Source of the DNA: Peptococcaceae bacterium BRH_c23
GTDB taxonomy: Bacteria > Bacillota_B > Desulfitobacteriia > Desulfitobacteriales > Desulfitobacteriaceae
NCBI GenBank assembly: GCA_000961805.1
Contig: LADV01000100.1
Span: forward strand, 1-18,320
Length of the DNA stretch: 18,320 nucleotides
Direction: 5' to 3'
The position numbers were made by a program, and so were the translations under genes. Shown one piece after another: positions 2,095 through 18,131 of this stretch (position 1 is the stretch's first letter; the number at the start of each line of letters is the position of its first letter). Below the pieces are notes generated by a model. The model ran no database searches and had not been told where the DNA came from. It was given only the letters and a program-made list of their open reading frames with translations.

Positions 2095-2130
2095 AGCGTT
2101 TCCTCCGTTTTAACACTTAGCCATTTTCAA

Positions 2131-3126
2131 TTACCACTGAGTAACAAAAGGCTCATAATCTTTTTCCCCCATTAAATGCTTCTCCAGCTTATACAGTTCT
2201 AAGCGCAATAATCGTCGGTAAGAAACGGGTGATCCAATCTCTCTGTGATTAATCGTTGTCTTTAACCGATTTTCCAGCTCCTCAACAAACACCCTCCGAC
2301 CTTGTTCTTTGAGTATTAACCCACCCCCCTCTTTTTTGAAATCCTTCTTACTGATCATTTTCTTGCCAATCACAGAAAAAATGACGCGATCCACAATGAT
2401 CGGCTTAAAGATTTCCGCTACATCTAAATTGAGTGTAAACCGTCTAAAATTTGTCGTATGCAAATAACCAATACGTGGATCAAGATGGGTCCGATAAATT
2501 TCACTAAGGACTGTAGAATACATGATCGTATTGCCAAAACTAATCAATGTGTTGATCTCGTTTTTTGGAGGCCTCCTAGAACGACCATCGAAGATAAAGT
2601 CTTCTTGCCCATGGATCGCGTCAAACGCCCGATAATATTGGTCCCGAATATTCCCTTCGATGGCCATAAGTACAGATATATCTGCTGATGAGCTAATTTT
2701 TTCTGCCAATCTTTCGATCTCACTCAGTTGCTCCCCAACATCTTTACTACGATTGGCATAATATTTTAGGACCTGGCGAATATTGCGCTCGGCCCCAGTC
2801 ACAAACTGTCGGGCAATGTGCAGTCGGGATTCCGGTTTAAGATAATGCTCCGCTTGTCGCAGGATCATATAACCCGAGTTATAGTGTTCTCTAGGATAAA
2901 ACGTGCCTGTGTAATACCCGTAATGATTATAGTAATGGATTATAATTTCCTTCTGCGTACAAAACTCCAAAAAGCGCTTATTCAGGTCAACCTCACCAAA
3001 AACCATCAGTTCCGACGTGTCCTCCACCGGAATAAATTTACGATCCCCTTCTTCACTCTCAAAGAAGATGGTGTTATCTTTGCGGTGCAATTGTCCATTT
3101 GAAAAAATATAGAGCGTTTTTTTCAA
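2131..3126 (-). CDS. cas1: CRISPR-associated endonuclease Cas1, type I-B
   Basis: A 331-residue Cas1, the integrase that joins prespacers to the leader-proximal repeat. The N-terminal beta domain (about 1-85) includes DTSELMVFGEVDLNKRFLEF. The helical C-terminal domain carries the metal ligands: E157 in MAIEGNIRDQYY, H223 in IGYLHTTNFRRF, and E238 in LNLDVAEIFKP. All three catalytic positions are present, so the protein should be active. The DGRSRRPPKNEINTLISFGN segment is a strong family signature. Only 35 bp separate it from cas4. This is the sole cas1 in the window, so both effector operons must rely on it for new spacers unless another copy exists elsewhere. Confidence 0.98.
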   Translation of the reverse strand: MKKTLYIFSNGQLHRKDNTIFFESEEGDRKFIPVEDTSELMVFGEVDLNKRFLEFCTQKEIIIHYYNHYGYYTGTFYPREHYNSGYMILRQAEHYLKPESRLHIARQFVTGAERNIRQVLKYYANRSKDVGEQLSEIERLAEKISSSADISVLMAIEGNIRDQYYRAFDAIHGQEDFIFDGRSRRPPKNEINTLISFGNTIMYSTVLSEIYRTHLDPRIGYLHTTNFRRFTLNLDVAEIFKPIIVDRVIFSVIGKKMISKKDFKKEGGGLILKEQGRRVFVEELENRLKTTINHREIGSPVSYRRLLRLELYKLEKHLMGEKDYEPFVTQW

Positions 3127-3161
3127 AGGTTTCCCCTCGATTCTATCTAAAATAACTCTTG

Positions 3162-3674
3162 TTACGCCCAGCAGAATTCTTTATAAGCACAATTTCTACA
3201 TAAGGGAATTTTCCGAAGAAGTGGAGGAGTATCTTGCTGTGCGATACTCTCAATTTCCAACGCCGCCACATCCAATTCATGTTCCAGCTCTGGCGTCAAC
3301 TCAACTTCTTCTTTCCGTTTCTCTTTAGGAAATAACAATTCTCCTTTCGCGTCAATTCCTCGGTCTTTTAGTTCTCTAAGATAAAAGGCCAGTTGCATGC
3401 GTGCACTTTGAAGGTATTTGGAACTTTTCTTCACTTCTCCGATGACCAATTTGTCCCTGTCTTGACGCACAATGTCCAGTTTGATATGTCCGATCGATAT
3501 CTCCTTTTGCTTATCTCGATTATAAGTGTTCTCATGAATAAACCGCCCTAAATCCATATTGCCATCATCTTGATCAGCATTAATCTGATGCACCATTAAC
3601 CATACCTCACGCGGACAGCAATAATAATACCAGATAAGGGTTCCCGTTAAGTTAAATTCGTTCTCACTAAGCAC
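3162..3674 (-). CDS. cas4: CRISPR-associated exonuclease Cas4
   Basis: A 170-residue Cas4 of the RecB nuclease family. It trims prespacers and, in type I systems, helps select and orient those next to a proper PAM. The iron-sulfur cluster cysteines are C19 or C20 near the N-terminus and C159, C162 and C168 in the tail LCRNCAYKEFCWA. The nuclease core is visible as H47, D67 (GHIKLD), E80-x-K82 (IGEVKKS) and Q94 (ARMQLAFYL). It sits between cas3 and cas1, which is the usual I-B order. The cas3 stop lies 51 bp beyond its start on the minus strand, so it probably shares the operon 1 transcript. Confidence 0.96.
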   Translation of the reverse strand: MLSENEFNLTGTLIWYYYCCPREVWLMVHQINADQDDGNMDLGRFIHENTYNRDKQKEISIGHIKLDIVRQDRDKLVIGEVKKSSKYLQSARMQLAFYLRELKDRGIDAKGELLFPKEKRKEEVELTPELEHELDVAALEIESIAQQDTPPLLRKIPLCRNCAYKEFCWA

Positions 3675-3725
3675 TTCAACCCTCCTCTCCTCAAGTAGCT
3701 ATCCAATACAACGATCAAGACACCA

Positions 3726-6110
3726 TCATAATATCATCGTTTTTCCTTCAACATTTAAGCCACCTGCTGGTGCATAATATCCTGATCTTAGAATCCATAG
3801 CTCTCCAGGGTGTTCATTGGCAATCTGCCGTGGGCTAAACCCCGGTTTAGCAAAAACATGAATGGAAACCATCGCAATCCGTCCTGCTAAAGCCCGCCTC
3901 GCTTCGCGCCGCTCCCACCGATCCTCCACCTGACTTGCTTGAGTCAGATCCTCTAACAATTCGGGATCTTCCTCACTCACGAGGAACGTAAACTGTTGCC
4001 GTTCTTTTCCTCGCAATAGTTCTCTGACCGGGTCATCCTCCAACCAACGCATATACCTTTCCAAATGCTCTTTGCCCGTATCCTTCTTTTTAGATAGTTC
4101 AGCAAAATAGCGTTCTGCTAACAACAATACATTTTCTTCTTGAACTTCGTCTTTATCTTGGAGTAGAGAGCGCGTCACTTGTAAATGAATCGCATCATAG
4201 ATCATCTCAGAGTAGCGACGCTCATTCTCATTAACAATATCAAAAATTTCCACGGTTCCACGCGAACCTTTCCCTTCCCGATTACAGCGGCCGGCTATTT
4301 GAATCAAACTATCGAGAGGAGCAAAATCGCGTAGGACTAAGTCTAGATCAATATCCACCCCGGCTTCAATGGACTGGGTCGAGACCACAATACACGGGTA
4401 CCCTTTTTTAATCTCATCCACAATAACGAGTCGATCTTTAGGGGTCACATCGGCACTAATAAAGAAGAGCTTCATTCCTTCTTCAACGTCAATCCAGCTC
4501 TCCTTGATTTCCTGCCAAACCTTTCGGGCACTCCCCCGCGTATTCAAGGTGATCAAAACCCGTTTGTGTTCACTGATCCAATCAGGCAGACGCTCTACCA
4601 TCAATTCACAGAAGGCGTCCAAGCTTATCGTTTCTTCCAAGCTAAATACCAGCTTGTACCTAGCAAAAGCAGAGAAATACGCCGGATAGTCTTTTACTAA
4701 AGGAGTGTGCTGGGAAACAAACGAAGGCAGAGTTGCCGACATCAAGAGCAGTTTGCTGCTCCCTAGACTCATTAAGCCCTGAAACACTCGATCAAGAGGT
4801 TGCCAGAGTTGGCAGGGCAATGATTGTACTTCATCCATAATAATCAGCGCATCACAAAGATGATGGAAACGCATTTGGTAGCGAGCCTTCGGATCCATTA
4901 AACTCATCAGAAACTGATCGTAGGTCGTTATAATTAGTTCACTTCGCCAAGTGTCCACGAAAAATCGTTCATCTTTCACTTCCATGTCCTGAGCATAGCT
5001 CCGATCCGATAAAGAGTGACTGGTCAAGAGCCAACGACCATCCTTCTCGACTCCTCCGATGGCTAATAGTTTGGCATACTCTTTGGCGGTTTGATCAATC
5101 ACCGATAGAAATGGCAGTACGACAATAATCTTCGGTGGATTTTCTGCTCTTCTGCGGATTTTCTCCTGCATTTTAAGTGCCCAGGTCGCTGCCAATAACG
5201 TCTTACCACATCCTGTAGGAGCCGTTAAGCTAAAAATGCGGTCTTCAAATTTTCCCTCAATCGAAAGCTTAACCTCCTCCCTCATTTTTCTACGCAATTG
5301 ATTGGTCAGTGACTCCAGGTCCTGAGGCAGATCCTTTTCCTTATTCTGATCCTCAAAGTTTCTAATCCGCTGTTCAACCCATTGCGCATCCCACTGTTGA
5401 ATCTCTCGTTTAAGATAGTTTTCCGGATTTGAGACAGCCAGCAGAGCCTTGTCCGCCTCTAGTAGCATGGAGAATAACAGTTGAATCTTTAAACGATAAG
5501 CCACTGCTTCCTCTTCAGTCAGCTTTTGGACAGTTTTAATTAATACCTCATTCATATAACGTTTCATCTTTATAACATAACTTGCAGGGTCATCACGAAT
5601 CCGCTCCCAATCCTTGGTCACGGGAAGGCCCGTTTGACGTTCCAACTCGACAAAGTCCAAGTTAGTTAGTTGCTTCTTAAGCACCCTGACACTCTCTCCA
5701 CCGGCAAAGTTATTTATGTCCCGATCGGAGCAGGATACTGCTCCGATCTTGCGTTCTGGGATTGTCGGTAGGGCGGTATGATGACCCCGAACCACCGCGC
5801 CTAAGCAGAGGGCATCGAGTGCATTCCATCCGTCTCCTTGAGTTAAGAGTAGCGTCAAAAACAACGAAAGAGAAGTATGAGCCTTTTCTTTGGGATCCCC
5901 TCGATAATGCTGAGGATCCTGAATAAAGGTTTGGAAGGCCGCCGAACCTTTACCAAGATCATGAAATTTTGCTAGCTTCGGTAACCACTCGGTTACGACC
6001 TCCCTGACTTCTTGAGAATGCCACTGAAGAAGGGCCTTCAACCCACTCTCGACTTGTTCAATATGTTCATGAAGCTCTAAATGTGGATGGGAATGAATCA
6101 CCGCACTCAT
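3726..6110 (-). CDS. cas3: Cas3 nuclease-helicase, operon 1
   Basis: A 794-residue Cas3 with an N-terminal HD nuclease fused to a superfamily 2 helicase. Cascade recruits it to target DNA, which it unwinds 3'-5' and degrades. HD motifs: FHDLGKGSAAF (H50, D51), H78 in KAHTSL, and the HH pair at 110-111. Helicase motifs: APTGCGKT (297-304), MDEVQ (425-429), LMSATLP (457-462), QSIEAGVDID (579-588) and QIAGRCNREG (604-613). The box II sequence is DEVQ where the operon 2 paralogue has DEVH; I read this as subtype variation, not damage. Its ATG overlaps the end of cas5 by 4 bp, implying coupled translation. It is clearly distinct in sequence from the second Cas3. Confidence 0.97.
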   Translation of the reverse strand: MSAVIHSHPHLELHEHIEQVESGLKALLQWHSQEVREVVTEWLPKLAKFHDLGKGSAAFQTFIQDPQHYRGDPKEKAHTSLSLFLTLLLTQGDGWNALDALCLGAVVRGHHTALPTIPERKIGAVSCSDRDINNFAGGESVRVLKKQLTNLDFVELERQTGLPVTKDWERIRDDPASYVIKMKRYMNEVLIKTVQKLTEEEAVAYRLKIQLLFSMLLEADKALLAVSNPENYLKREIQQWDAQWVEQRIRNFEDQNKEKDLPQDLESLTNQLRRKMREEVKLSIEGKFEDRIFSLTAPTGCGKTLLAATWALKMQEKIRRRAENPPKIIVVLPFLSVIDQTAKEYAKLLAIGGVEKDGRWLLTSHSLSDRSYAQDMEVKDERFFVDTWRSELIITTYDQFLMSLMDPKARYQMRFHHLCDALIIMDEVQSLPCQLWQPLDRVFQGLMSLGSSKLLLMSATLPSFVSQHTPLVKDYPAYFSAFARYKLVFSLEETISLDAFCELMVERLPDWISEHKRVLITLNTRGSARKVWQEIKESWIDVEEGMKLFFISADVTPKDRLVIVDEIKKGYPCIVVSTQSIEAGVDIDLDLVLRDFAPLDSLIQIAGRCNREGKGSRGTVEIFDIVNENERRYSEMIYDAIHLQVTRSLLQDKDEVQEENVLLLAERYFAELSKKKDTGKEHLERYMRWLEDDPVRELLRGKERQQFTFLVSEEDPELLEDLTQASQVEDRWERREARRALAGRIAMVSIHVFAKPGFSPRQIANEHPGELWILRSGYYAPAGGLNVEGKTMIL

Positions 6111-6844
6111 AAAAACAAAATCACCTTCCCAGCCACTTCATACCCTTCCGATGTAAGAACAGGAATTGGGGAGCCATCCCTTTCTAGAATATATCCCTCA
6201 TGTGTGAATACCCGCTCTGGAGTGACTGATCTCGGCATCCGGAGTAGATGCAAGGCAAGGTTCCGTTCTAATACTTTGGGAACCTGAATTTCTCCATGCC
6301 CTTGCCGAATTACCGAAGATACCTCATAACACCCACTTGGCAAGGGTTTAGCCGTCTCACTTCCTAAATACTGTAGATCTGCCATCATCTCAGAAAGCCC
6401 TAAGGAAGGCTGATAATACCACTGTCGCTCTCTTACCCGCCTCTCAAGCTCCTCATGATAGGGCTCTGGCAAGGATACCCAAAGGGTATAACTAGGATTA
6501 AGCAGCCACTCCTGCGCAATCAACGTTGCTCGTTCCGGCTTCGTGGTTTTTTCCTCTGATTGAGATCGTTTAACCACCTGAGGTAGTAACTCGGGAGGGT
6601 CCTTACGAAGTTTAGCTTTATGCCAAAATCCTTGGGGAACTTTCCCTGCTAAGGCAACTTGAAACGGTTCTAATACAACCTGAGGGCTGTCCTTCTGCAG
6701 ACCAAGCACCGCTCCAATCAACCCAAGAATAACGGTGCGTGGTGGAATGGGATAGCTCAAAGCGCTAGCTCCCGCTTCCGCTCGCAAAAAATGAGCAAAT
6801 CGTCCTCTTAATTGGAAAGAAATTAATTCAGTCACTTGCCTCAA
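6107..6844 (-). CDS. cas5b: Type I-B Cas5 (Cas5h-like), operon 1
   Basis: A 245-residue RAMP protein. Cas5 caps the 5' handle end of the crRNA in Cascade and contacts the large subunit. The N-terminus has the Cas5 pattern, ISFQLRGRFAHFLR followed by SYPIPPRTVILGLIGAVLGL, which is the conserved proline and hydrophobic helix segment of the family. It overlaps cas7 upstream and cas3 downstream by 4 bp each, so the three genes are translationally linked. Subtype assignment to the Csh series rests mainly on the neighbouring Csh2 and TM1802-type genes. Confidence 0.93.
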   Translation of the reverse strand: MRQVTELISFQLRGRFAHFLRAEAGASALSYPIPPRTVILGLIGAVLGLQKDSPQVVLEPFQVALAGKVPQGFWHKAKLRKDPPELLPQVVKRSQSEEKTTKPERATLIAQEWLLNPSYTLWVSLPEPYHEELERRVRERQWYYQPSLGLSEMMADLQYLGSETAKPLPSGCYEVSSVIRQGHGEIQVPKVLERNLALHLLRMPRSVTPERVFTHEGYILERDGSPIPVLTSEGYEVAGKVILFL

Positions 6845-7827
6845 CGTCCTTTGGGGAGATCTTCAATAGCAAGTTCCTCCCAATATTCCGGCAACGGATC
6901 GGTCAAACCTATATCCTTAGAAATTGCATAGCGCACGGTGGAAATCCGACCCTTCTGTTCATTAATTCTAGTCACAAGTTTGCCGAGATCGAGTTGATAA
7001 TCATCTGGCGAAGACCACTCTTTTTCTTCTTTTTCCGCCGTCGCTAAGAGTTTCACATAATCGTGCAAACGCCCGAACTGAAATTCCTCTCCAGGTTGAT
7101 AGTCGATGCTCAGGATTAGACGGGGGATTTGTCCAACCTTGGTACGTGTATTACCAGCACTCCTTACTCCGTGCCAAAGAGATTTTAATAAAAGCTCATA
7201 GTCTTCATCGCTCAGACGAGAAAGCTCTGCGGAATGTTCATTGGCAAACCCCGAAAAGCCAATCAACGCATAACGCAGTCCGTAATAAGAGGTGAAGGTT
7301 CCTTGGCTCTTGCTTTCATCACTCCCAAAGACAGACGTGCCATGAATATCGACGCTCTCCGCTCGGTGTAGAACCTCTCCCATATTTAGTTGCACCGCAC
7401 CCGTTAACGTTTTTGGCACAGGTTTGGCTTTCCATGTTTGATCTTTTCCTTTATCATCTTTGAATTTCTCTTCTTTAAAGGCTAAAGAACTTCCAAATAA
7501 CCGAGCATCTATAAAGGCATCTAACAGTACCTTGACCAGCTCTTGTCCATCGACCTTCTCCTTGCCATTATTGGCCAAGTAATGTACGACCCGACCGGTG
7601 AGATTCGTGGTACGCCCCTCAATATTGTCCACGAGAATTTCATACTTGCGACTTTTTAAGAAGTCTCGGCTAAAGCGCTTTAAGCGAACATCTGTCACAT
7701 AGTACGTTCCATCTGGTAACACCCGCGGTCGGTTTTCATCAGGGTCCCCATTAGGGTTTCCCATTTTAATATCATAGAGAAACAAGAATTCGCGCCGTCC
7801 GCTCAGAGTTTTGATTTGATCAGACAT
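6841..7827 (-). CDS. cas7b: Type I-B Cas7/Csh2 backbone subunit, operon 1
   Basis: A 328-residue Csh2-type Cas7, the RAMP subunit that forms the helical backbone along the crRNA spacer. The signature begins REFLFLYDIKMGNPNGDPDENRPR, followed by VTDVRLKRFSRDFLKS, and later DARLFGSS and LTGAVQLNMGEVLHR. The ATG follows AGGAGGTTAAATC, a strong ribosome binding site suited to a subunit needed in several copies per complex. It is separated from cas8b by 11 bp and overlaps cas5 by 4 bp. The related I-C protein Csd2 also has a GNPNGDP motif, but the TM1802-type large subunit upstream argues for I-B. Confidence 0.95.
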   Translation of the reverse strand: MSDQIKTLSGRREFLFLYDIKMGNPNGDPDENRPRVLPDGTYYVTDVRLKRFSRDFLKSRKYEILVDNIEGRTTNLTGRVVHYLANNGKEKVDGQELVKVLLDAFIDARLFGSSLAFKEEKFKDDKGKDQTWKAKPVPKTLTGAVQLNMGEVLHRAESVDIHGTSVFGSDESKSQGTFTSYYGLRYALIGFSGFANEHSAELSRLSDEDYELLLKSLWHGVRSAGNTRTKVGQIPRLILSIDYQPGEEFQFGRLHDYVKLLATAEKEEKEWSSPDDYQLDLGKLVTRINEQKGRISTVRYAISKDIGLTDPLPEYWEELAIEDLPKGR

Positions 7828-7838
7828 GATTTAACCTC

Positions 7839-8258
7839 CTATACCTCTTTTGATTTCGACGGTAAAATGCTTTCCGTCATCGATTGACCTAAGAGCAAAA
7901 AATAGTTAGTGCCCACTTCATCTAGTTTAATTCGATCACCTAAACGAATTCCGAGTTGCCCCAACTCTTGAATTAGCATGCGTATATCTGGGCTCTTCTC
8001 TGACTCATAAGACAAGAGCTTTTCACGGATCTTAATATACAGTTCCGGAAGATCCTTGCCTTTCAGAGTAAGTCGTTTGAGCCAAGTCAAAGCGTTCGCA
8101 CCTACATTCACGCCTCTCGCCCCTTGGACTTGAAGCAACTTACCGTAGAGTACGCCTAAGAGAAAAGCATAGGATTTTTCTGGAGAATCAATCCCACTTT
8201 CCGGACCAAAATAAGGCTTCAAAGCCTCCATAGCAGGTTCATAAGGTTGTTTGTTCAT
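7839..8258 (-). CDS. Possible internal start for Cas11b small subunit within operon 1 cas8b
   Basis: An in-frame ATG at codon 538 of cas8b (sequence MNKQPYEPAMEALKPYFG) would give a 139-residue C-terminal product. A purine-rich AAAGAGGTG lies at 8271-8279, 12 nt upstream, somewhat further than optimal. Separate translation of the small subunit from inside cas8 is established for some type I systems, including I-B. This instance is weaker than the one in operon 2 and is offered as a candidate only. Confidence 0.35.
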   Translation of the reverse strand: MNKQPYEPAMEALKPYFGPESGIDSPEKSYAFLLGVLYGKLLQVQGARGVNVGANALTWLKRLTLKGKDLPELYIKIREKLLSYESEKSPDIRMLIQELGQLGIRLGDRIKLDEVGTNYFLLLGQSMTESILPSKSKEV

Positions 8259-9869
8259 TGGAAGTACACCCACCTCTTTGCTTCTAAAATAATTGAGATA
8301 CCAATTAAAATGTTTAATCCAAGCTGCAGCGGAGATCTCATTGCCGTTTTTGTCCGCCGATTCGTATAACAAACTCCGATAGCCATCCTTATTAGCTACT
8401 GCCTCAGCGACATAACTCCTTGCCGTGGTTAACGCTTCATCCCAAAATCGGTTCTCTGCTATTGATGTGCCATGATAAACCCCTTCCGCCAAGAGCCGCT
8501 TAAGCTGAAACAACTGTTTACTGGCATTGGCATCTTTAACCTTTTTACCGCCCGGGCGTAAAAACAAGGGGTTAAGAGCGGATAGAGCCAATTGTGGTTT
8601 GAAGTTAAACCGTCCACTCCAGAGAGGCTTCTTGGGAAAAAGCGGACTTACCCACTCTTGGGTTGAGTCATTAAACTGAGAGAGCTGTCGTAATCGACTC
8701 GGAAGGACTTGCGTGATCAAACCAGTGACGTTTTCAAGATTCTGGCCAACATCTGCCCAGAGAACGGTCAAATTCAGAATACCCTCTGAGTCCTTCAGTG
8801 AATCAAGTAACCCCTTCTCATCCTCCTCCACATCCTCTTTAAATCCTTGGATATACTCTTGTACATCATGCAAACAGTTTTGCCGCACCTCTAAAGGGAG
8901 TCCCGGAAAAAACTCTGGGATAACTAAAGCATTTTCTCCTGCAACCTTCGCTCCAAATGGTTGCCCCTTTTTTTCAGGCCCCCCTTTCTTCAAAACATGA
9001 AATTTAAAGACGTAGAGAAGATCAGAACACGAGGCACAAAGCGCATATCCCTTCCAGGCCTGTGCTGCATCGATTCCAGGAAAAACTCCAATCCGATCTG
9101 TATTTAAAAGATTAACCCCTGCACCTTTAAGTGCATTAGGAAAGACCGTGACAGCATCTTGTCCACATAACGGACAACGCGCTTCTTCCTCGGCGGGCGA
9201 TCCTCCAGTCACATAACGTTCCCCCGCCAACTTTGCCTTTAAAAGATAATCTGTGTAAACCAACTGTTCACCCGGGAGTTTGTCCTGAGCATCTCTAATT
9301 GTTAGAAACACTGTGTTCTTCTGTGGTCCAATGCCTTCAACTACACAAGCTAGCATTGAAGAAAAGCCTTCTTTTTCCCAATCCATGACTAGCCCATCAG
9401 CCAGTCTAAGCTTTGGTCTTTCCAAGATCCCCAGTATTTCTTTGAAATAATCAGACCATGGTTTTTGCGCTTCAGATACCTCCCGAAAATATTTAACAGT
9501 TGTTGCGAGAATCTTTTCACTTGGACCACTGCCTTCTTTAGCATAGGTTCTTTTGATCACTGGTCCAACAGCAGGACTCTGTGACCCCGATGGTTTCATA
9601 AAAGGCAGTTTATAAGCAGGGCACCCGCCACTCTCCTCCTTCCCTTGTACGACATCTTCCACAGTTAATTTTGCTGTATCAGCGGATTCCCGTTCCAAAA
9701 TATAGACCTTGTCCACCTTACCACTGTCCTCAACCAGATAGGGAAATAATTGGCCTAGTGAATTCAGTCTGAGATTTTGATACCAAGCCTCCGAATTCTC
9801 TGGCATATCTCCCTGATTTAAGTTTTCTAGAAGATAATCCAATGCCAACTCGCGCATTGATGCGATCAT
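7839..9869 (-). CDS. cas8b: Type I-B large subunit Cas8b (Csh1/TM1802 family), operon 1
   Basis: A 676-residue large subunit that reads the PAM and starts R-loop formation in Cascade. A zinc-finger-like pair is visible: CPLC at 232-235 and CASC at 278-281, spaced as in the TM1802/Csh1 group. The helical C-terminal portion (from about 538) corresponds to a fused or separately translated small subunit. The start at 9869 is chosen because AAGGAAG lies 7 nt upstream; an in-frame Met at residue 5 is the alternative. It is the first gene of operon 1. Upstream is a broken cas6, the gene that normally leads this operon. Family assignment is from motif and context, so the exact Cas8b variant is less certain than the I-B call. 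Confidence 0.9.
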   Translation of the reverse strand: MIASMRELALDYLLENLNQGDMPENSEAWYQNLRLNSLGQLFPYLVEDSGKVDKVYILERESADTAKLTVEDVVQGKEESGGCPAYKLPFMKPSGSQSPAVGPVIKRTYAKEGSGPSEKILATTVKYFREVSEAQKPWSDYFKEILGILERPKLRLADGLVMDWEKEGFSSMLACVVEGIGPQKNTVFLTIRDAQDKLPGEQLVYTDYLLKAKLAGERYVTGGSPAEEEARCPLCGQDAVTVFPNALKGAGVNLLNTDRIGVFPGIDAAQAWKGYALCASCSDLLYVFKFHVLKKGGPEKKGQPFGAKVAGENALVIPEFFPGLPLEVRQNCLHDVQEYIQGFKEDVEEDEKGLLDSLKDSEGILNLTVLWADVGQNLENVTGLITQVLPSRLRQLSQFNDSTQEWVSPLFPKKPLWSGRFNFKPQLALSALNPLFLRPGGKKVKDANASKQLFQLKRLLAEGVYHGTSIAENRFWDEALTTARSYVAEAVANKDGYRSLLYESADKNGNEISAAAWIKHFNWYLNYFRSKEVGVLPMNKQPYEPAMEALKPYFGPESGIDSPEKSYAFLLGVLYGKLLQVQGARGVNVGANALTWLKRLTLKGKDLPELYIKIREKLLSYESEKSPDIRMLIQELGQLGIRLGDRIKLDEVGTNYFLLLGQSMTESILPSKSKEV

Positions 9870-10007: not shown

Positions 10008-10135
10008 AATTACAGCCCCCCTTATGTAGTCCATTATCTCAACCTGCTTAAAGTTTACAGTATTAGCTAGACATTTTTCTGTTATGATTAACTAATTTCT
10101 CATTACATCAAATATTAAACCTTTCTTCTAACCTT
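10008..10135 (-). promoter_or_regulatory. Retained cas6 upstream region ahead of operon 1
   Basis: This AT-rich stretch aligns by eye with the region upstream of the intact cas6 (18132 to about 18250), including the G-rich Shine-Dalgarno run, CTCAACCTGCTTAAAG against CTCAACTTACTTTAAG, and TTAGCTAGACA against TTAGACA. It has kept recognisable similarity although the gene behind it is gone. That would be expected if it still supplied the promoter for cas8b-cas7-cas5-cas3-cas4-cas1-cas2. I cannot assign -35 and -10 boxes confidently here. Confidence 0.45.
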
Positions 10136-10467: not shown

Positions 10468-10513
10468 CCACTGGTGTAAATAAATACAAAAAATATTAAG
10501 GAGTTGATTACAG

Positions 10514-11305: not shown

Positions 11306-13636
11306 TCAAAAGCACCTTGCCTCAAAACTATTTTCAGAATTCAAAATTCCCTCTTCTTTTGTATAAGGTATTTCATAAATCGGCAGACTCATGGGATTGG
11401 ATACTGCTTTAAGCTCTCGCAAATGAGATCCCCCAACTGATACTTCATATAATCTAATCAATGAATATTTCTTTTTTCCCCACAAGTCCACAACTTCCCC
11501 ATAAAACTTTTGTGGAATAACCGTAATTTTTAGATAATTATCAAAATTGCGGGTAGCTGTTTGTTCATTTACTGGCAGATCAAAGATAAACCCTTGGGAA
11601 TTTACAGCGGTGGCTATTTCTGCATAGAGTCGGTATCCTTTTTGGAATTCGTCATTGTCCGGCCCTAATTTAGTTCCTTCATAAACATTTTCTAGTAACC
11701 GGGCCAATTCATCTTCTCTAAGTTTTTTTTGGTTTTCTCTAACAATATCAGCCGTTTTTTTAAGGACCGCATCCGCACTTTTATAAACATATTCTAGTGC
11801 CGTTTCCGAAGCCGGAAATACAATAAAGAAGTACTCGCCTTCCCTTCCGTAGCGGTTACATCTCCCTGCCCTTTGAATTAAACTATCCAGAGGAGCGCAT
11901 TCGCTGTACATCACATCAAAGCTGATATCAAGGGAAACTTCAATAGCCTGTGTGGCAATGACCAAATCGTAATTTATAGGACGACCTTTATCGTCCTTGT
12001 CCAATAAAGCGTCCTCTTTCTCCTGACGGTCCTTCATAATAAACTGGCTATGATAACAAAGCACCTTTTCTTTGTCAATAAATTTGACCCACTGACGATA
12101 GGCTTCTTGTGCCGCTTGGACAGTATTGAATACAATTGCTACTTTCTTTCCCTGCTGTAGGAAATGCCGAATTTCTCCTATCATTTCATCAATTGTATCT
12201 TCTCTGTATTTCCATTGACATTTTTTTCTGCCCATTAATTCTTCGGCAACAACTGGTGCCGGTACATCCAAAAGCTTTAGAAAATGCTCCCGCAGAAAGG
12301 TTGGCATGGTTGCACTCATCAGACATACTGAACCGCCAAGCAGCTTAATTTTTTCAATCGCCGCAGTAATAAGGCCTAGCGTGTAAAACTGGTAAGCATG
12401 AACTTCGTCGAATATAACCCTACTGCCCACCAAGGCCCATTCTTTTTGACACCAAGCCCCGATATTGAACCCACTGGTTAACACCTGATCTACCGTTGCC
12501 ACCATCACCGGGGCCATGAAAGCTCGATAGCGGATTAATTCCCAGCGTAAATCCTGCGAAGTATTATCCTGCTCCCCGTCATTTTGCTGGGCAAAATAAG
12601 TATCCGCTCCCGAATGAATTAAGCCGCATTCCTTATCCTGAAAATAGTTATTACTCATGCGTCTATACAGGCTGTTTGAAGTCACCATAGTTGGCATCAA
12701 AAAAATAATTTTCGCTGGTTCTCCATTCGTTGCCCAGAGCAAAGCTGCTTCTGTTTTACCTGAACCTGTGGGGGCAATTGCCAATAGATTACCTTGAGTT
12801 TTTTCACATATAAGGTGGAACAGGCGTTTTTCAAAAACCAGCCCATCTTGTTCCACCTTGACTTGTATTTTTCCCCACAAAATAGAACTTGACATTTGAT
12901 GATTAATTGGCAATCTTTTATCTTTATCTTTTTCAGAAGCCAACCAGTCACAATCCATCAACAATCCTTTAATTAAAGCGTAAACCAGCCTAATCTCTTG
13001 CCTTTCCTCAGCAGGAATTTTCTTCAGGTTTGTTTCTTCTAACCTTTGTCTGAGTGCTCGGAACAAGGTTGAAGGCCATTGGGAAAGTGTAAATATCTTT
13101 GTAAGCAAGAAAGTATCAAAAGAGCAAACCAAACCATTTTGAGCAGCAACCTCAAGTACCCGTTTAATCTCCTCCGCCTGCAGTCCAGGTGACTCTTTAC
13201 GGGACATTTCCCTCTCAAAACTGTGCCAATCCACTTGCAGAGTTTTATGGTGACCTAACACGGCCAGCAGTTCACAAGGGATCAACGTTGCTTCTGTTTG
13301 AAGTCGCTCCTGTTCCATTACAAATAGAAACAGCGCTGATGCCAGTTCATGCCGAAAATTCAGGGAACGATCGGTTGGCTGATATGCCACCAATCGCTGC
13401 ATTTGCTGTTGAAAGGTCGGAAGAAGTTTCCCTGCGTCATGAAATAAGATTGCTTTTTCTGTCTGTTCCTTAAAATCCTCAAGTGACATCCCAATGGAAC
13501 TGCAAAAGTAGGCAAGCGCATTTTGTCGACTTTGAAATGATTCTTGCCAAAGTTTGTGGCATTCCGTAACGTGATAAATATAGCTTCCTTTTTCCCCGGT
13601 ATCGGGTTTAGCATATTCTGTCCGCATGTCCATCAT
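11306..13636 (-). CDS. cas3: Cas3 nuclease-helicase, operon 2
   Basis: A 776-residue HD-helicase fusion and the second Cas3 of the window. HD motifs: H22, ILFHDAGKLLPTF (H66, D67), H96 in NFRHE, and the HH pair at 129-130. Helicase motifs: APTGSGKT (288-295), IFDEVH (408-413), LMSATMP, QAIEVSLDISFD and QRAGRCNRYG. All are intact. Its ATG overlaps the cas5 stop by 4 bp (ATGA). It is the last gene of operon 2; no adaptation genes follow. Having a separate Cas3 fits the rule that each effector complex recruits a matched nuclease. Confidence 0.97.
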   Translation of the reverse strand: MMDMRTEYAKPDTGEKGSYIYHVTECHKLWQESFQSRQNALAYFCSSIGMSLEDFKEQTEKAILFHDAGKLLPTFQQQMQRLVAYQPTDRSLNFRHELASALFLFVMEQERLQTEATLIPCELLAVLGHHKTLQVDWHSFEREMSRKESPGLQAEEIKRVLEVAAQNGLVCSFDTFLLTKIFTLSQWPSTLFRALRQRLEETNLKKIPAEERQEIRLVYALIKGLLMDCDWLASEKDKDKRLPINHQMSSSILWGKIQVKVEQDGLVFEKRLFHLICEKTQGNLLAIAPTGSGKTEAALLWATNGEPAKIIFLMPTMVTSNSLYRRMSNNYFQDKECGLIHSGADTYFAQQNDGEQDNTSQDLRWELIRYRAFMAPVMVATVDQVLTSGFNIGAWCQKEWALVGSRVIFDEVHAYQFYTLGLITAAIEKIKLLGGSVCLMSATMPTFLREHFLKLLDVPAPVVAEELMGRKKCQWKYREDTIDEMIGEIRHFLQQGKKVAIVFNTVQAAQEAYRQWVKFIDKEKVLCYHSQFIMKDRQEKEDALLDKDDKGRPINYDLVIATQAIEVSLDISFDVMYSECAPLDSLIQRAGRCNRYGREGEYFFIVFPASETALEYVYKSADAVLKKTADIVRENQKKLREDELARLLENVYEGTKLGPDNDEFQKGYRLYAEIATAVNSQGFIFDLPVNEQTATRNFDNYLKITVIPQKFYGEVVDLWGKKKYSLIRLYEVSVGGSHLRELKAVSNPMSLPIYEIPYTKEEGILNSENSFEARCF

Positions 13637-14397
13637 CCGTTTCCCAAAGAAAATAAAGGGATGGTCTCCTGACCAAAAGAATAAGCAGGACAGGGATTTT
13701 TTAAGTTGTGAAACTTGGCTAGAAAAGTAAAAGTCTGATATTCCGAACCTTTGCGCTCACCATCTGCGCCAAAGACAAAGCGGACCGGTAATTTTTTGAC
13801 CATGGGTAAGGCTAAAAAAACCGTAACCTTTTCTTTCTCAATCAATTCCCAGTTAAACGCATAATTATCTGATTGGTCTCCGGGAACTAACCTGTAGCTA
13901 AGGTCAGTTGAACCTCCCGCAATTTTTCTGACTCTGTCAATAGACGATACCTCTTTTAGCAAAGCAATATCATCGCTGGTGCCTAAAGTTAGGGCCCAGG
14001 CAGGAGAGTGGAAAGCTTGCTGCAAAGACTCCATAACTCTCCGTTCTTGGCTGCCATAATAAAGCCGATACGCCGGACGGAACAAAAACTCTCTCTTTAG
14101 AATATCGCTTCGTAATTCTTTGGATACAATCTTTTGGTATTTCCAAAGATCCAGTCCTTTACCCGCCGATTTTTTTCTCTCCTTAACACTAATATCCTGG
14201 ACACCTACTCCGATATTATTCTCAAGGAAATACTCCCAAACCTGTTGAAACGGAAACCCTAAGGCTGCTCCGGCAATACCTATGATCGTCGAGACGGGAG
14301 GCATGGGCAGGGTTGCATGATAAAGCTGTCCACCCGGATCGCGGAATGAAGCCGTTTCCGCTAAAAGTATAACAGAGAAACCGTAACCGTCCATCAT
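13633..14397 (-). CDS. cas5b: Type I-B Cas5 (Cas5t-like), operon 2
   Basis: A 254-residue Cas5. The N-terminus FSVILLAETASFRDPGGQLYHATLPMPPVSTIIGIAGAALGF is the Cas5t-type form of the conserved beta-strand and proline-helix segment. It caps the crRNA 5' handle in Cascade. The gene overlaps cas3 by 4 bp and follows cas7 after 18 bp. It is only distantly similar to the operon 1 Cas5, consistent with two separate complexes and not a recent duplication. Confidence 0.92.
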   Translation of the reverse strand: MMDGYGFSVILLAETASFRDPGGQLYHATLPMPPVSTIIGIAGAALGFPFQQVWEYFLENNIGVGVQDISVKERKKSAGKGLDLWKYQKIVSKELRSDILKREFLFRPAYRLYYGSQERRVMESLQQAFHSPAWALTLGTSDDIALLKEVSSIDRVRKIAGGSTDLSYRLVPGDQSDNYAFNWELIEKEKVTVFLALPMVKKLPVRFVFGADGERKGSEYQTFTFLAKFHNLKNPCPAYSFGQETIPLFSLGNG

Positions 14398-14415
14398 TCT
14401 GCTCTCCTCACCATT

Positions 14416-15285
14416 TTAATATATACCATCCAACCAGGCTTTCATCTTGCCAAAGGCTTCGCCCATGGTCAGTGCCTGCATAGTATCCTCAGGGAAAAAA
14501 CCTTTACGCTCTCCAATAACGGTTTCTTTAATTACGTTGGAAAAATCTTTAATGGTAGATTCAATTAGTCCAATTTTTACTATTCCTTGTGCATCCACAT
14601 CAAGGCATTCTAAAAATATTGGATTTTTTACCGCCATAAGTCCTGCGCATATAAATTTAGGAGAAATATCGGCTAAGAAACGGCTTTGTCTTCCTACTCC
14701 CCAAAGGTTTTGAATCGCGTCCAATAGGACACCTACCCGGCGCTTCTTTTCAGCAGCTTCTAAATCTAACTTGTACGTAGAAGCATCTGCTACCCCGATT
14801 CTGTCGAGTTCGATCAGAATGGTTCCCCGATATATGCCGGAATGAATTTCACTTTCAAATATATTCGGATTTCCACCAGCTTTAACACCCATATAATTGG
14901 TGGCAAAATCAAGTTCGCCACGATACTCTTCTAAAGAAATTAAAGGGGATACCCGTACTGGACTGGTACGTTTGATGGTTTCTTTGTCAGCCTGCATAAA
15001 ACCAAATAAATCGTCATCAATATATTCTTGTGGTTTGCATTGAGTAGAAGTGGCACCTTTGTCCTGTTTTGCCTCCGTAGATTCCGATAGTTTTTCTCCT
15101 AAAACGGCCAATTGTTCACGCAAATCCCGACGGATCGCCTGCGAAGATTTATAGGGATATTCTTTACCATCCGCCGCTTGGATTTTTTTTATACTGGAAA
15201 TGTTGTCTGCTTCTTTGTCCGAACCGTTCAAAGATGCATAGGAAGCTTTCGTTAAATACGTAATAGTTAAACATTTAGCTTGCAT
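14416..15285 (-). CDS. cas7b: Type I-B Cas7/Cst2 (DevR-like) backbone subunit, operon 2
   Basis: Cas7 of the Cst2/DevR family, 289 residues from the chosen start. The N-terminus CLTITYLTKASYASLNGSDKEADNISSIKK is characteristic of this group. TSPVRVSPLISLEEYRGELDFATN and later segments also fit. An ATG 51 bp further upstream would overlap cas8b by 47 bp. I prefer 15285 because the conserved domain begins there, AAAGGAG lies 9 nt upstream, and the start is then just 4 bp past the cas8b stop. Role: oligomeric backbone gripping the crRNA. Confidence 0.93.
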   Translation of the reverse strand: MQAKCLTITYLTKASYASLNGSDKEADNISSIKKIQAADGKEYPYKSSQAIRRDLREQLAVLGEKLSESTEAKQDKGATSTQCKPQEYIDDDLFGFMQADKETIKRTSPVRVSPLISLEEYRGELDFATNYMGVKAGGNPNIFESEIHSGIYRGTILIELDRIGVADASTYKLDLEAAEKKRRVGVLLDAIQNLWGVGRQSRFLADISPKFICAGLMAVKNPIFLECLDVDAQGIVKIGLIESTIKDFSNVIKETVIGERKGFFPEDTMQALTMGEAFGKMKAWLDGIY

Positions 15286-15289
15286 AAGA

Positions 15290-15652
15290 TTACTCTCCTT
15301 TATCTTCTTGGTTTTCGTCTCTCGTCTCTTCATCATCTTTTTTGCCTTTTGATCGTTTGAAATTATTATAAGTATTCAAAGCCCCCAATAGGCAGTAAGA
15401 TTTAAAATCGTCAAAAGTTACTTTTTCTAATATCCCTCCCAAGATCTGATTGGAAACGACAATATTGTAACGGAACTGGATTCTGTTCAGTTGTTCTAAA
15501 AAATCTGTGACAGTGCGGGTTTTACGCAAAGTGAATAAATCCCCTTTTACCCTGTCAAAATTACTGCCTGAAATATCCTTAGCAATATCTCTGGCAGAAA
15601 GAACAATCTGCCTACCCAAATTAACCGCTACATCAACTTGGTCTTGAGTCAT
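15290..15652 (-). CDS. cas11b: Cas11b small subunit from internal start in operon 2 cas8b1
   Basis: Codon 468 of cas8b1 is an ATG (15650-15652). AAAGGAGG lies at 15661-15668, exactly 8 nt upstream, as strong as any ribosome binding site in the window and unlikely to arise by codon choice alone. The product would be 120 residues, MTQDQVDVAVNLGRQIVL onwards, largely helical, about the size of a Cascade small subunit. Internal translation of Cas11 from cas8 is established for several type I subtypes. Not separately proven here, but the signal is clear. Confidence 0.75.
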   Translation of the reverse strand: MTQDQVDVAVNLGRQIVLSARDIAKDISGSNFDRVKGDLFTLRKTRTVTDFLEQLNRIQFRYNIVVSNQILGGILEKVTFDDFKSYCLLGALNTYNNFKRSKGKKDDEETRDENQEDKGE

Positions 15653-17053
15653 CCCGATCCCCTCCTTTATTTTTAACTGATAACTTTGAGTAAAATTTAA
15701 TAAATTTCCGAGAAAAGGAAAATCATCTTTCAAGGATTTTCTAAAAGCAAAAGACTCCATCTGCTGAAGAATGTCCTTTTTCTGAAGAACCCTTTGCAAA
15801 ATACGGTTTCGCCAAAGATTATTACTAATATCAAATGCTTTCCCTTCGTTAGGCAGATATAGGTCTCGGAAAACTTTGAATAAAAATTTATGATCTTGAG
15901 CAAACTCTTCATGAAACGAATGTAATAAACGGAAAGCATAAGCAGTTTCTGAATAAGCAATAATTTCTTTTATCATAAATGTTTGTCCTTTATACCCAAT
16001 CACTAACAAGTATATCTGTAGAGGTGTTTCAATTACCGGCTTAATACATAACATCGTCAGTTCCTCAGCAGATTGAGCATGCTCTTCTGCTTCTATCCGC
16101 AAAGATTCATACGAATCATGAAAAAACGCCCAAAGAAATTCATAAGGTAATTTAGCATAATAAAGCAACCGATTATCGCTTTTTGTGGTTCCAATATTAG
16201 ACAAATGATTTTCTTCATCGAATTGGCGTACATTTGCTTGAGCGTTAAGAAACATATGACTATTGATCAACTTTTCTGCATGACTTGTCGTCATTTGTAA
16301 AATGAATAGATTTTCTGGTTTCCTATCTTTTATCCTTTGTTTGTAATAAGCAGCCTCTACAGCAAATTTGCTCAAAAATTGACATTCCCAACAAATTTTA
16401 TCCGGCTTTTTCCCTTCGGAATTAAAAGATAATGTCGCGGTTGGGCTTGCAAACAATAGAAATGAAGGTTGAGATACTTCACTACATATATTCTCTTGGC
16501 CACAAATACAGCAAGTTGTTCTTGTACCTTTGTTAGGAAACAACTGGATTATTGGATGGCACACCGGGGAATCATAAAGTAAACGTTTTTTCGCACCCCA
16601 AAGCGTCTTTTGATTTTCAAGTAAGAAAGTATCCACTCTTTCCTGCATTTTCATGGATAATTTTGCATATTCTTCATTTTCCGCTCGATAACTACTTCCC
16701 TTCGTAAACAGGCCAGGAATAGGGGTGGGACTGCGGCGTGGAATTAGACCGAATTGGTTAGTATTTTTATCATAAATCACAAGCTCGTTTGCTTCGCGTT
16801 GTTTTCTTGTCGACACATTCCAATATCTGTTGGCCAATTCTTCGTAACAACTGTCCAAAAAATCTTTTAGCGTCTGCTGAGATGGCGCTTGAAAAATTAA
16901 TTCTTGCATATTAACGGAATAGTGAATGGAATGATATTGAGAATTGCTATCCTTTAGTTGTCCCGCTATATTGTACAGTCCAATAATGCCAGAATCGATC
17001 CACCAATGATGTCTTAAGGGGAAGGTATGTTCATAAACCAGTTTCTCTTCCAC
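15290..17053 (-). CDS. cas8b1: Type I-B large subunit Cas8b1/Cst1, operon 2
   Basis: A 587-residue Cst1-family protein, named for paired CXXC motifs. Both are present: CCIC at 181-184 and CWEC at 221-224, presumably a zinc ribbon. It acts as the Cascade large subunit. The start is GTG at 17053 with AGGAGG 7 nt upstream, an excellent ribosome binding site. The acidic-basic tail (KKDDEETRDENQEDKGE) is disordered-looking. It leads operon 2 and is separated from cas6 by a 271-bp non-coding gap holding a candidate regulatory RNA. By eye it is more AT-rich than operon 1. Confidence 0.93.
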   Translation of the reverse strand: MEEKLVYEHTFPLRHHWWIDSGIIGLYNIAGQLKDSNSQYHSIHYSVNMQELIFQAPSQQTLKDFLDSCYEELANRYWNVSTRKQREANELVIYDKNTNQFGLIPRRSPTPIPGLFTKGSSYRAENEEYAKLSMKMQERVDTFLLENQKTLWGAKKRLLYDSPVCHPIIQLFPNKGTRTTCCICGQENICSEVSQPSFLLFASPTATLSFNSEGKKPDKICWECQFLSKFAVEAAYYKQRIKDRKPENLFILQMTTSHAEKLINSHMFLNAQANVRQFDEENHLSNIGTTKSDNRLLYYAKLPYEFLWAFFHDSYESLRIEAEEHAQSAEELTMLCIKPVIETPLQIYLLVIGYKGQTFMIKEIIAYSETAYAFRLLHSFHEEFAQDHKFLFKVFRDLYLPNEGKAFDISNNLWRNRILQRVLQKKDILQQMESFAFRKSLKDDFPFLGNLLNFTQSYQLKIKEGIGMTQDQVDVAVNLGRQIVLSARDIAKDISGSNFDRVKGDLFTLRKTRTVTDFLEQLNRIQFRYNIVVSNQILGGILEKVTFDDFKSYCLLGALNTYNNFKRSKGKKDDEETRDENQEDKGE

Positions 17054-17074
17054 TTGATAACCTCCTCTCTTATT

Positions 17075-17103
17075 ATGATATAATGTGGTACAAATAAATG
17101 CAA
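17075..17103 (-). promoter_or_regulatory. Candidate promoter of operon 2 (cas8b1)
   Basis: On the minus strand TTGCAT (17103-17098) and TATCAT (17080-17075) are separated by 17 bp and end 21 bp ahead of the GTG start. The -35 is weak, the -10 differs from consensus at one base. The same bases also carry a plus-strand TATAAT (17079-17084) with TTGATA 19 bp upstream, so the polarity is not certain. The segment 17076-17090 is the predicted target of the crRNA-like RNA described nearby. Confidence 0.5.
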
Positions 17104-17127
17104 GATGTTATGGAAATATTTTTCAAA

Positions 17128-17156
17128 TTGCTTATAACTGTCATATGAATTATAAT
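17128..17156 (+). promoter_or_regulatory. Promoter of the crRNA-like RNA
   Basis: TTGCTT (17128-17133) and TATAAT (17151-17156) with exactly 17 bp between them, a strong sigma-70-type promoter on the plus strand. Initiation near 17163 would be about 12 nt ahead of the first degenerate repeat. No protein-coding gene lies downstream in this direction. Confidence 0.75.
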
Positions 17157-17174
17157 AAGTAATCAATGTTGCCA

Positions 17175-17204
17175 AAGTTTAGTTTGCCTATTAGGATTTG
17201 AAAC
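17175..17204 (+). repeat. Degenerate CRISPR repeat 1
   Basis: Core GCCTATTAGGATTTGAAAC keeps the repeat body and a nearly intact 5' handle (TTTGAAAC). The differences cluster in the first ten bases, the part that would end up at the 3' end of a preceding crRNA. Confidence 0.85.
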
Positions 17205-17219
17205 TGATAAAATGTTGTA

Positions 17220-17249
17220 AATTTTAGCTTGCCTATAAGGATTTTAAGG
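17220..17249 (+). repeat. Degenerate CRISPR repeat 2
   Basis: Core TAGCTTGCCTATAAGGA is kept but the handle is lost (ATTTTAAGG). Losing the downstream handle is what would be expected if only the first repeat has to supply a functional handle. Confidence 0.85.
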
Positions 17250-17270
17250 AAATTTACTAAGACCTTGAGC

Positions 17271-17318
17271 AAAGTCAAAAATACCTTACGAAATGTACGT
17301 AGAGGTGTTTTTGACTTT
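17271..17318 (+). terminator. Long hairpin ending the crRNA-like transcript
   Basis: Arms AAAGTCAAAAATACC (17271-17285) and GGTGTTTTTGACTTT (17304-17318) pair fully if one G-U wobble is allowed in the plus-strand RNA; in minus-strand RNA the same position is an A-C mismatch. The flank GTTGTCTT is only moderately T-rich, so terminator strength is uncertain. It lies 6 bp past the cas6 stop and may stop both converging transcripts. Confidence 0.55.
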
Positions 17319-17324
17319 GTTGTC

Positions 17325-18131
17325 TTATCCCCTCCCCATCACCTCCAAACATCCGCACCCTTGTGCATTCTTACTTCCCAGGCCTGCATCTATGGCAACT
17401 TGAAGCAACTCAGGCGGCCCAGATAGTTCCATCATCCCCGAGTATCCTTTGATGATCCCCCCCTTATACTCCAAAATGTGCATCTTTGGATTATTGAGCA
17501 TATGAAGGTTAACGCTCCTTCGCTCACCTTCTAGATGATCACTGGCGTTGTTCATGGGATAGGAGCTTGCGCTTTCATCCTTTTTCTCGGCTTGATTCCA
17601 AGTTCTGATCCCTTCCCATTTCTTCTGGAGATTTTCAGCCACAATGCGCCTAAACTCCGGTTCTCCGGGCTGCAGATAGACTGTATATTTGCTCCCGTCT
17701 CCACGAAACATAGTGCTATAGGCTACAACAGGTGAGAGTGTGCGTACACGAATAGTCTCGCTCAGCACATTCGGATGTGAGACTTGAATCCCAGTAATCT
17801 CCGCACTAATCCCGCCGATTCTTAACGCCAACTGTTTTAGCAGTCCCCCTGCGATAGAGCCTAGAATATCGTCTATCGGTGAGGAGACAATCCAATTGGC
17901 TCCTTCAGGGAAACGGATATACTTTTTATCCTTAGATAGCTCATAACGTCCCAATAGCTTTGAAAATGTAAAGAGACGAAAAATCCGTCCATCTCCTTCA
18001 AAACCCTGGGTATGGACCTGATCTGCAATATTTCCTTCCATCACATGATAAATCGCGCTTTGAAGCCAATAGTGATAATGAATTGGAAACCCTTCTGTTG
18101 GTGAAAACTTTAAGCATATATTCAACCTCAT
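17325..18131 (-). CDS. cas6: CRISPR pre-crRNA endoribonuclease Cas6
   Basis: A 268-residue Cas6, which cuts pre-crRNA within each repeat just 5' of the ATTGAAAC handle. Visible features: the N-terminal strand RLNICLKFSPTEGFPIHYHYWLQSAIY with candidate catalytic histidines H18 and H20, the internal GGIIKGYSGMMELSG strand (about 224-238), and the C-terminal glycine-rich loop GLGSKNAQGCGCLEV typical of the RAMP family. The ATG follows an AAGGGGG ribosome binding site. It is the only intact cas6 here; two broken relatives lie around hicAB. It therefore probably processes the array for both effectors and also the crRNA-like RNA whose gene converges on its 3' end. Confidence 0.95.
   Translation of the reverse strand: MRLNICLKFSPTEGFPIHYHYWLQSAIYHVMEGNIADQVHTQGFEGDGRIFRLFTFSKLLGRYELSKDKKYIRFPEGANWIVSSPIDDILGSIAGGLLKQLALRIGGISAEITGIQVSHPNVLSETIRVRTLSPVVAYSTMFRGDGSKYTVYLQPGEPEFRRIVAENLQKKWEGIRTWNQAEKKDESASSYPMNNASDHLEGERRSVNLHMLNNPKMHILEYKGGIIKGYSGMMELSGPPELLQVAIDAGLGSKNAQGCGCLEVMGRG

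What the first reader, a model, noticed from the sequence alone, without database searches (positions are those of the whole stretch)
17054..17324. crRNA-like RNA whose pseudo-spacer targets the cas8b1 promoter with mismatches only at positions 6 and 12
Seen: a TTGCTT-N17-TATAAT promoter, degenerate repeat, 15-nt pseudo-spacer, degenerate repeat and hairpin on the plus strand, between cas6 and cas8b1. TGATAAAATGTTGTA against 17076-17090 gives 13 of 15 matches. The two mismatches fall exactly at 6 and 12, the nucleotides type I Cascade flips out of the guide-target duplex, and the flanking 5' trinucleotide is TTA, plausible as a type I-B PAM. The matched block covers the predicted -10 of operon 2. 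Known: CreTA and CreR use crRNA-like RNAs with degenerate repeats and short complementarity so that Cascade represses a promoter without recruiting destruction; creTA in haloarchaeal I-B also lies between cas6 and cas8. Inferred: Cascade loaded with this RNA autorepresses operon 2 (CreR) or a small toxin transcript (CreTA).
Basis: partly seen in the sequence, partly recalled or inferred. Interest (0 to 1): 0.93.

Follow-up and report, generated by a model that had tools for sequence, protein, structure and literature searches.

The report
CRISPR-like RNA aimed at cas8b promoter
Between two CRISPR genes of an uncultured bacterium lies a miniature CRISPR unit whose 15-letter guide matches the DNA just ahead of the cas8b gene, so its RNA is predicted to steer the CRISPR complex to turn down its own genes: a known kind of feedback switch, here in a locus that carries two CRISPR effector sets.

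Summary
Two degenerate 30-nt repeats (17175-17204, 21/30; 17220-17249, 20/30) are the two best non-array matches to the array repeat in the window, on one strand, with a 15-nt pseudo-spacer between them. It matches 17076-17090 at 13/15, with mismatches only at 6 and 12 and 5' TTA; nothing else in the window exceeds 11/15, and all 13 non-sixth positions match in at most 1 of 20,000 gap shuffles. The pairing (1-5, 7-11) is what CreA guides were shown to need (PMC8501985). TTA is the best PAM of a Parageobacillus I-B system, where short guides repress without cutting (PMC10551041). The only ORF with a ribosome-binding site beside the target is cas8b, so I favour CreR-type autorepression of the cas8b operon over CreTA. 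Not shown: transcription, Cas6 processing, repression, this system's PAM. The strongest promoter-like match at the target lies on the opposite strand, so the unit may also repress itself. Co-variation could not be tested: the one relative with DNA has its gap cut. New member of the CreR kind, in a locus with two effector modules.

The parts
17175..17204 (+). psi-repeat 1, 21/30 to the array repeat; last 8 nt TTTGAAAC would be the 5' handle
17205..17219 (+). 15-nt pseudo-spacer (guide)
17220..17249 (+). psi-repeat 2, 20/30; first 22 nt 16/22, last 8 nt 4/8
17197..17241 (+). predicted mature RNA of 45 nt (8-nt handle, 15-nt guide, 22-nt 3' handle)
   Evidence: inferred from the processing reported in PMC8501985; no RNA data
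17076..17090 (+). target (protospacer), 13/15, mismatches at 6 and 12
17073..17075 (+). TTA, candidate PAM
   Evidence: sequence; PAM of this system not determined
17075..17103 (-). candidate cas8b promoter TTGCAT-N17-TATCAT, its -10 overlapped by PAM and target
   Evidence: crude score, recalled weights; not found by the strict scan
17149..17175 (-). alternative cas8b promoter TTGGCA-N15-TATAAT, upstream of the target
   Evidence: crude score
17054..17084 (+). plus-strand promoter-like TTGATA-N19-TGATATAAT overlapping the target; highest crude score in the gap
   Evidence: crude score
17128..17156 (+). candidate promoter of the unit, TTGCTT-N17-TATAAT
   Evidence: sequence; not found by the strict scan
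17268..17321 (.). strong hairpin on both strands, perhaps a terminator; no run of T follows
17325..18131 (-). cas6, the only intact one in the window
15290..17053 (-). cas8b of the Cst-type module, GTG start behind AGGAGGT; predicted regulated gene
11306..15336 (-). cas7 (Cst2), cas5, cas3 of the Cst-type module
1831..9869 (-). second I-B module: cas8b (TM1802/Csh1), cas7 (Csh2), cas5, cas3, cas4, cas1, cas2
1..1660 (-). CRISPR array, 25 repeats visible, spacers 35-38 nt; runs off the window; crRNA sense inferred to be the minus strand

Best explanation
A plus-strand miniature CRISPR unit (17175-17249) carries a 15-nt guide that matches the DNA 22 bases ahead of the cas8b start at 13 of 15 positions, and it is predicted to be a CreR: an RNA that likely guides Cascade to sit on that DNA and repress the cas8b-cas7-cas5-cas3 operon. 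Inferred steps: the RNA is transcribed, cut by Cas6 to about 45 nt (17197-17241) and bound by Cascade. The complex would open 17076-17090 next to TTA and block RNA polymerase, at the cas8b promoter if that is the one at 17103-17075, or as a roadblock if transcription starts further upstream (the candidate at 17175-17149, or read-through from cas6). The guide is too short to license Cas3 cutting, so binding would repress and not destroy. When array crRNAs or anti-CRISPRs draw Cascade away, the operon would rise again. The site also overlaps a plus-strand promoter-like sequence, so the unit may limit itself too.
For: Paired degenerate repeats are the two best non-array scores in the window; 1 of 10,000 gap shuffles gives such a pair at 18 or more. 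Guide-target match 13/15 with mismatches only at 6 and 12, unique in the window; all 13 non-sixth positions match in 1 of 20,000 shuffles of 17054-17174 and 0 of 20,000 of the whole gap without the spacer. Of both strands of the window, only this site and the spacer itself reach 9 or more of the 10 seed positions. The repeats keep the halves that two-repeat creA genes keep. In H. hubeiense CreA each of nucleotides 1-5 and 7-11 is needed and 6 and 12 are free (PMC8501985 section 15). TTA is the most effective PAM of the Parageobacillus I-B system, whose guides of 26 nt or less, 15 nt included, repress without cutting (PMC10551041). Cas8b is the only ORF beside the target with a ribosome-binding site, AGGAGGT at spacing 6. 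In H. hispanica the cas6-cas8 gap holds a strong promoter for the downstream cas genes (PMC9458426, passages). CreR autorepression is reported for I-B, I-E and V-A (PMC13131331, passages).
Against: No expression data. Neither candidate cas8b promoter nor the unit's promoter passes the strict scan, and the highest crude promoter score at the target is on the plus strand. The hairpin lacks a run of T, so cas8b may also be reached by read-through from cas6. The PAM of this system is unknown: no protospacer was found for the 2 of 24 spacers searched in viral contigs. The one relative with DNA has a cut gap and no cognate handle-plus-seed in its genome. The two repeats differ from each other at only 6 of 30 places, whereas creA repeats share 11-19 of 30. 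In Haloarcula a 16-nt guide left 66.66% of the mRNA of the gene it targeted (PMC10989794, passages), so a 15-nt guide may repress weakly. Neither psi-repeat folds better than shuffles, as is true of the array repeat too.
Confidence: 0.72

Rival explanations
1. CreTA: the guide represses a small toxic RNA read on the plus strand from TTGATA-N19-TGATATAAT (17054-17084), which would begin near 17091, carry the 16-codon ORF at 17098 and run into the guide gene, as in the H. hubeiense creTA operon.
For: The highest crude promoter score in the gap lies on that strand inside the target. H. hubeiense creT and creA share one promoter that CreA represses (PMC8501985). In H. hispanica creTA lies between cas6 and cas8.
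Against: The 16-codon ORF and the other plus-strand ORFs from 17054 to 17293 lack a ribosome-binding site, while the Acinetobacter CreT needs one and H. hubeiense CreT needs strong initiation signals. 17091-17174 does not fold better than shuffles. The one relative with DNA shows nothing on this point because its gap is cut.
Confidence: 0.12
2. Self-limiting guide: the RNA represses chiefly its own plus-strand promoter (17054-17084), and cas8b is affected little or not at all.
For: Same plus-strand promoter-like sequence inside the target; auto-repression of the guide's own operon is known for H. hubeiense.
Against: The unit has a nearer candidate promoter at 17128-17156. A complex 22 bases ahead of the cas8b start would lie in the path of transcription from either candidate cas8b promoter. 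The plus-strand sequence needs a spacing of 19.
Confidence: 0.09
3. Decayed fragment of an old CRISPR array with a chance resemblance to AT-rich promoter DNA.
For: The repeats are diverged and share six positions that both differ from the present array repeat; the gap is AT-rich; no expression data.
Against: The spacer is 15 nt against 35-38 nt in the array. The match and the places of its mismatches exceed shuffles. The handle of repeat 1 and the front of repeat 2 are the parts that survive.
Confidence: 0.07

Closest known systems
CreR, cas-regulating RNA of type I-B, I-E and V-A systems (PMC13131331, PMC12737573, PMC12948488: passages seen; the original paper is not in the library)
   Same: crRNA-like unit beside cas genes; partial match to DNA in front of a cas gene; no recognisable toxin
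   Different: Here one of two I-B modules in a locus carries the site, and the target overlaps promoter-like sequence on both strands; repression not tested
CreTA of haloarchaeal type I-B (PMC8501985, PMC9458426)
   Same: Two degenerate repeats with the same conserved halves; pairing at 1-5 and 7-11; in H. hispanica also between cas6 and cas8
   Different: PAM TTC there, TTA here; repeats here share 24/30 with each other against 11-19/30 there; no small ORF with a ribosome-binding site
CreTA of Acinetobacter type I-F (PMC10097628)
   Same: An ORF with a ribosome-binding site lies downstream of the target and divergent from the guide gene; guide mismatched at 6
   Different: Here that ORF is cas8b, not a 33-bp toxin ORF; type I-B; 15-nt instead of 20-nt guide
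Shortened crRNAs in Parageobacillus thermoglucosidasius type I-B (PMC10551041)
   Same: TTA as best PAM; guides of 26 nt or less repress and do not cut
   Different: Engineered, fully matching guides aimed at a reporter gene; kinship of its Cas8b with this one not tested

Membership tests
CreR | Degenerate mini-CRISPR unit beside the cas genes | tested here: met
CreR | Guide partly complementary to DNA in front of a cas operon, seed positions paired | tested here: met
   target 22 bases ahead of the cas8b start
CreR | The paired DNA is the operon's active promoter | tested here: inconclusive
   candidate promoters by crude score only; strict scan negative
CreR | Target flanked by the system's PAM | tested here: inconclusive
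   TTA present; no protospacers found to define the PAM
CreR | RNA processed by Cas6, carried by Cascade, represses cas expression | not testable with these tools
   needs RNA sequencing and reporter assays
CreTA | Guide gene with degenerate repeats | tested here: met
CreTA | Adjacent creT with well-initiated mini-ORF under the targeted promoter | tested here: not met
   no ribosome-binding site before small ORFs beside the target; a toxin RNA without an ORF is not excluded
CreTA | Toxicity in the absence of Cascade | not testable with these tools
   needs transformation assays
Ordinary CRISPR array | Near-identical repeats and spacers of the array's usual length | tested here: not met
   repeats 21/30 and 20/30; spacer 15 nt against 35-38 nt

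The most novel reading that the evidence does not exclude
The RNA is a switch for a reserve effector. Two type I-B Cascades share one Cas6 and one array, and the crRNA-like RNA, with its own TTTGAAAC handle, keeps the Cst-type Cascade and its Cas3 silent as long as Cascade is free to carry it. When phage anti-CRISPRs or a flood of crRNAs disable or occupy Cascade, the second effector set, with a different Cas8b, Cas7, Cas5 and Cas3, is released as a back-up that the same inhibitor may not recognise.
Probability: 0.2. Interest if true: 0.8.

Novelty: new member of a known kind. Interest (0 to 1): 0.56.

Why it matters
It is a compact, testable bacterial type I-B case in which the guide-target pair itself carries the sixth-position signature of Cascade, and the target sits in front of only one of two effector modules. 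That makes a concrete question answerable: can a crRNA-like RNA let one Cascade hold another in reserve? If only the ordinary reading is true, it still adds a CreR candidate from an uncultured Firmicutes-like lineage (lineage judged from the named relatives), attached to a divergent Cas8b that matches no Pfam or NCBIfam model.

Tried and rejected
Co-variation in relatives: one scan of genome contigs with the cas8b protein gave 1 locus (L001, Firmicutes bacterium UBA5435, 65% identical). The protein search lists 83 proteins including the window's own, without DNA. Viral contigs, plasmids and phages gave no relative of this cas8b, viral contigs none of its cas7. In L001 the DNA up to 3476, about 112 nt before cas8b, is a second copy of 2368-2439, which I read as an insertion, so the gap is lost. 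The handle-plus-seed expected from L001's own upstream DNA has no match in that genome at up to 3 mismatches. Five stretches of that genome hold no same-strand pair of degenerate repeats at 18/30 or more within 80 nt (by inspection of the printed lists). PAM: 2 of 24 spacers searched in viral contigs, no match; whole array against phages, 10 records, the longest match 38 bases and no E-value under 0.5; against plasmids, 2 records with long weak matches, which I take for other arrays. A composite of the two psi-repeats against plasmids gave 3 weak hits. A scan of viral contigs for close-set repeat cores gave 11 stretches, none like this unit. Rfam: no family. Solved structures: 5 weak hits to a proteasome subunit, set aside as unconvincing. 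Papers: listings (RNA kind; paired I-B modules) named no paper on this locus; only the shown rows were seen, and the original CreR paper and its prediction lists are not in the library. No structure was predicted.

Full report
What is there. The window holds two type I-B effector modules read on the minus strand. Nearest the array are cas8b (TM1802/Csh1), cas7 (Csh2), cas5, cas3, cas4, cas1 and cas2 (1831-9869). Further up are cas8b, cas7 (Cst2), cas5 and cas3 (11306-17053), preceded by cas6 (17325-18131). The Cst-side cas8b matches no NCBIfam or Pfam family but matches PADLOC Cas8b models. A second cas6 is only a remnant: pieces at 9928-10130 and 11129-11208 match the intact gene or the DNA at its start. 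One array of 25 repeats is visible. No whole genome is held for the window, so other arrays or cas6 genes elsewhere cannot be excluded.

The crRNA-like unit. In crRNA sense (inferred) the array repeat is GTCCGTAGCCTGCCTATAAGGAATTGAAAC. Scanning both strands, the two best non-array matches are 17175-17204 (21/30) and 17220-17249 (20/30), on one strand and 15 nt apart; the other listed ones are 18. Of 10,000 dinucleotide shuffles of the gap, 9 reach 20 or more and 1 holds a same-strand pair of 18 or more. Repeat 1 keeps its last 8 nt (7/8) and repeat 2 its first 22 (16/22), while repeat 2's last 8 are largely lost (4/8). That is the tendency reported for two-repeat creA genes, whose repeats supply an 8-nt 5' handle and a 22-nt 3' handle (PMC8501985, sections 14 and 19). 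Unlike those, which share 11-19 of 30, the two repeats here are still alike (24/30). By reading the printed alignment, six positions are the same in both and differ from the array repeat. I infer descent from a repeat variant that is not the present array's.

The match. The pseudo-spacer TGATAAAATGTTGTA matches 17076-17090 at 13/15 with mismatches at 6 and 12 and TTA on the 5' side. Apart from itself, the next best site in the window is 11/15, and no other site reaches 9 of the 10 seed positions. Against 17054-17174, 0.5% of 20,000 shuffles reach 13/15 and 1 of 20,000 matches all 13 non-sixth positions; for the whole gap without the spacer the figures are 0.64% and 0; for 17054-17104 they are 0.1% and 0; 50,000 letter-shuffled spacers give 0.29% and 0.008%; 0 of 2,062 real noncoding 15-mers reach either mark. 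The best matches upstream of cas6, upstream of the other operon, in the leader and in the hic-cas3 gap are 11, 10, 9 and 11 of 15.

Why CreR. In H. hubeiense each of nucleotides 1-5 and 7-11 of the guide is needed, while 6 and 12 can be changed (PMC8501985 section 15). A solved type I-B Cascade shows the 5+1 pattern with the sixth base flipped (PMC11096372, passages). In Parageobacillus the best I-B PAM is TTA, and guides of 26 nt or less, 15 nt included, repress without cutting (PMC10551041, passages and sections 6 and 7); those guides matched fully and were aimed at a reporter gene. CreRs are described as autorepressing I-B, I-E and V-A cas genes through partial promoter complementarity (PMC13131331, passages; also PMC12737573 and PMC12948488, passages). 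In H. hispanica the cas6-cas8 gap carries a strong promoter for the downstream cas genes (PMC9458426, passages). Whichever cas8b promoter is used here (17103-17075, 17175-17149 or read-through from cas6), a Cascade at 17073-17090 would lie on it or in its path. Cas8b is the only ORF beside the target with a ribosome-binding site; the other matches to one are at 17272-17320, in the hairpin.

What speaks against it. The strict promoter scan finds neither the cas8b candidates nor the unit's own promoter, and lists no terminator; the strong hairpin at 17268-17321 has no run of T behind it. The highest crude score in the gap is on the plus strand, TTGATA-N19-TGATATAAT, inside the target (weights recalled). 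It could drive the unit itself or a small toxin RNA. The plus-strand 16-codon ORF at 17098 has no ribosome-binding site, and 17091-17174 does not fold better than shuffles, so CreTA is less likely but not excluded. In Haloarcula a 16-nt guide left 66.66% of the mRNA of its target (PMC10989794, passages). The PAM of this system is unknown.

Relatives. One relative came with DNA (L001, UBA5435). Its cas8b, cas7 and cas3 are 65-66%, 80% and 64% identical, but the DNA ending about 112 nt before its cas8b is a second copy of a nearby stretch, read as an insertion. ATCATAAT upstream of cas8b is kept in both; its complement contains the TTA and the first four guide bases, but promoter constraint would explain this equally. 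The expected handle-plus-seed is absent from that genome.

Verdict. The CreR reading is the best supported, at about 0.72, and every functional step is inferred. By kind it is a new member of CreR. What could lift it is the two-module setting: of the two I-B modules, the guide matches upstream of the Cst-type one alone (best match upstream of the other 10/15), so the RNA might hold a reserve effector in check. That is untested.

Noticed in passing
9928-10130 and 11129-11208: Remnants of a second cas6 (80-86% identical DNA to the intact gene or its start region) lie on either side of the hicAB-like pair; DNA upstream of the Csh-type operon resembles that at the start of cas6.
   Followed up: partly
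10252-10936: HicA-like and HicB-like pair (Pfam; HicB below its cut-off) between the two effector modules.
   Followed up: no
199-233 and 530-564: The same GC-rich spacer occurs twice in the array.
   Followed up: partly
17175-17249: The two psi-repeats share six positions that both differ from the array repeat, as if both came from another repeat variant (read from the alignment).
   Followed up: partly
L022, L023, L024, L025, L027, L028, L029, L032: Eight of 11 viral contigs found carry a near-identical solitary mini-CRISPR unit with an I-B-like repeat core, perhaps RNA-based anti-CRISPRs (recalled idea, untested).
   Followed up: no
L020 18001-18225 (Aneurinibacillus thermoaerophilus plasmid pAT1): A stretch that matches the array weakly on a prophage-like plasmid; no cas1-cas8 gene is named in the incomplete gene table of the 36 kb shown.
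   Followed up: no
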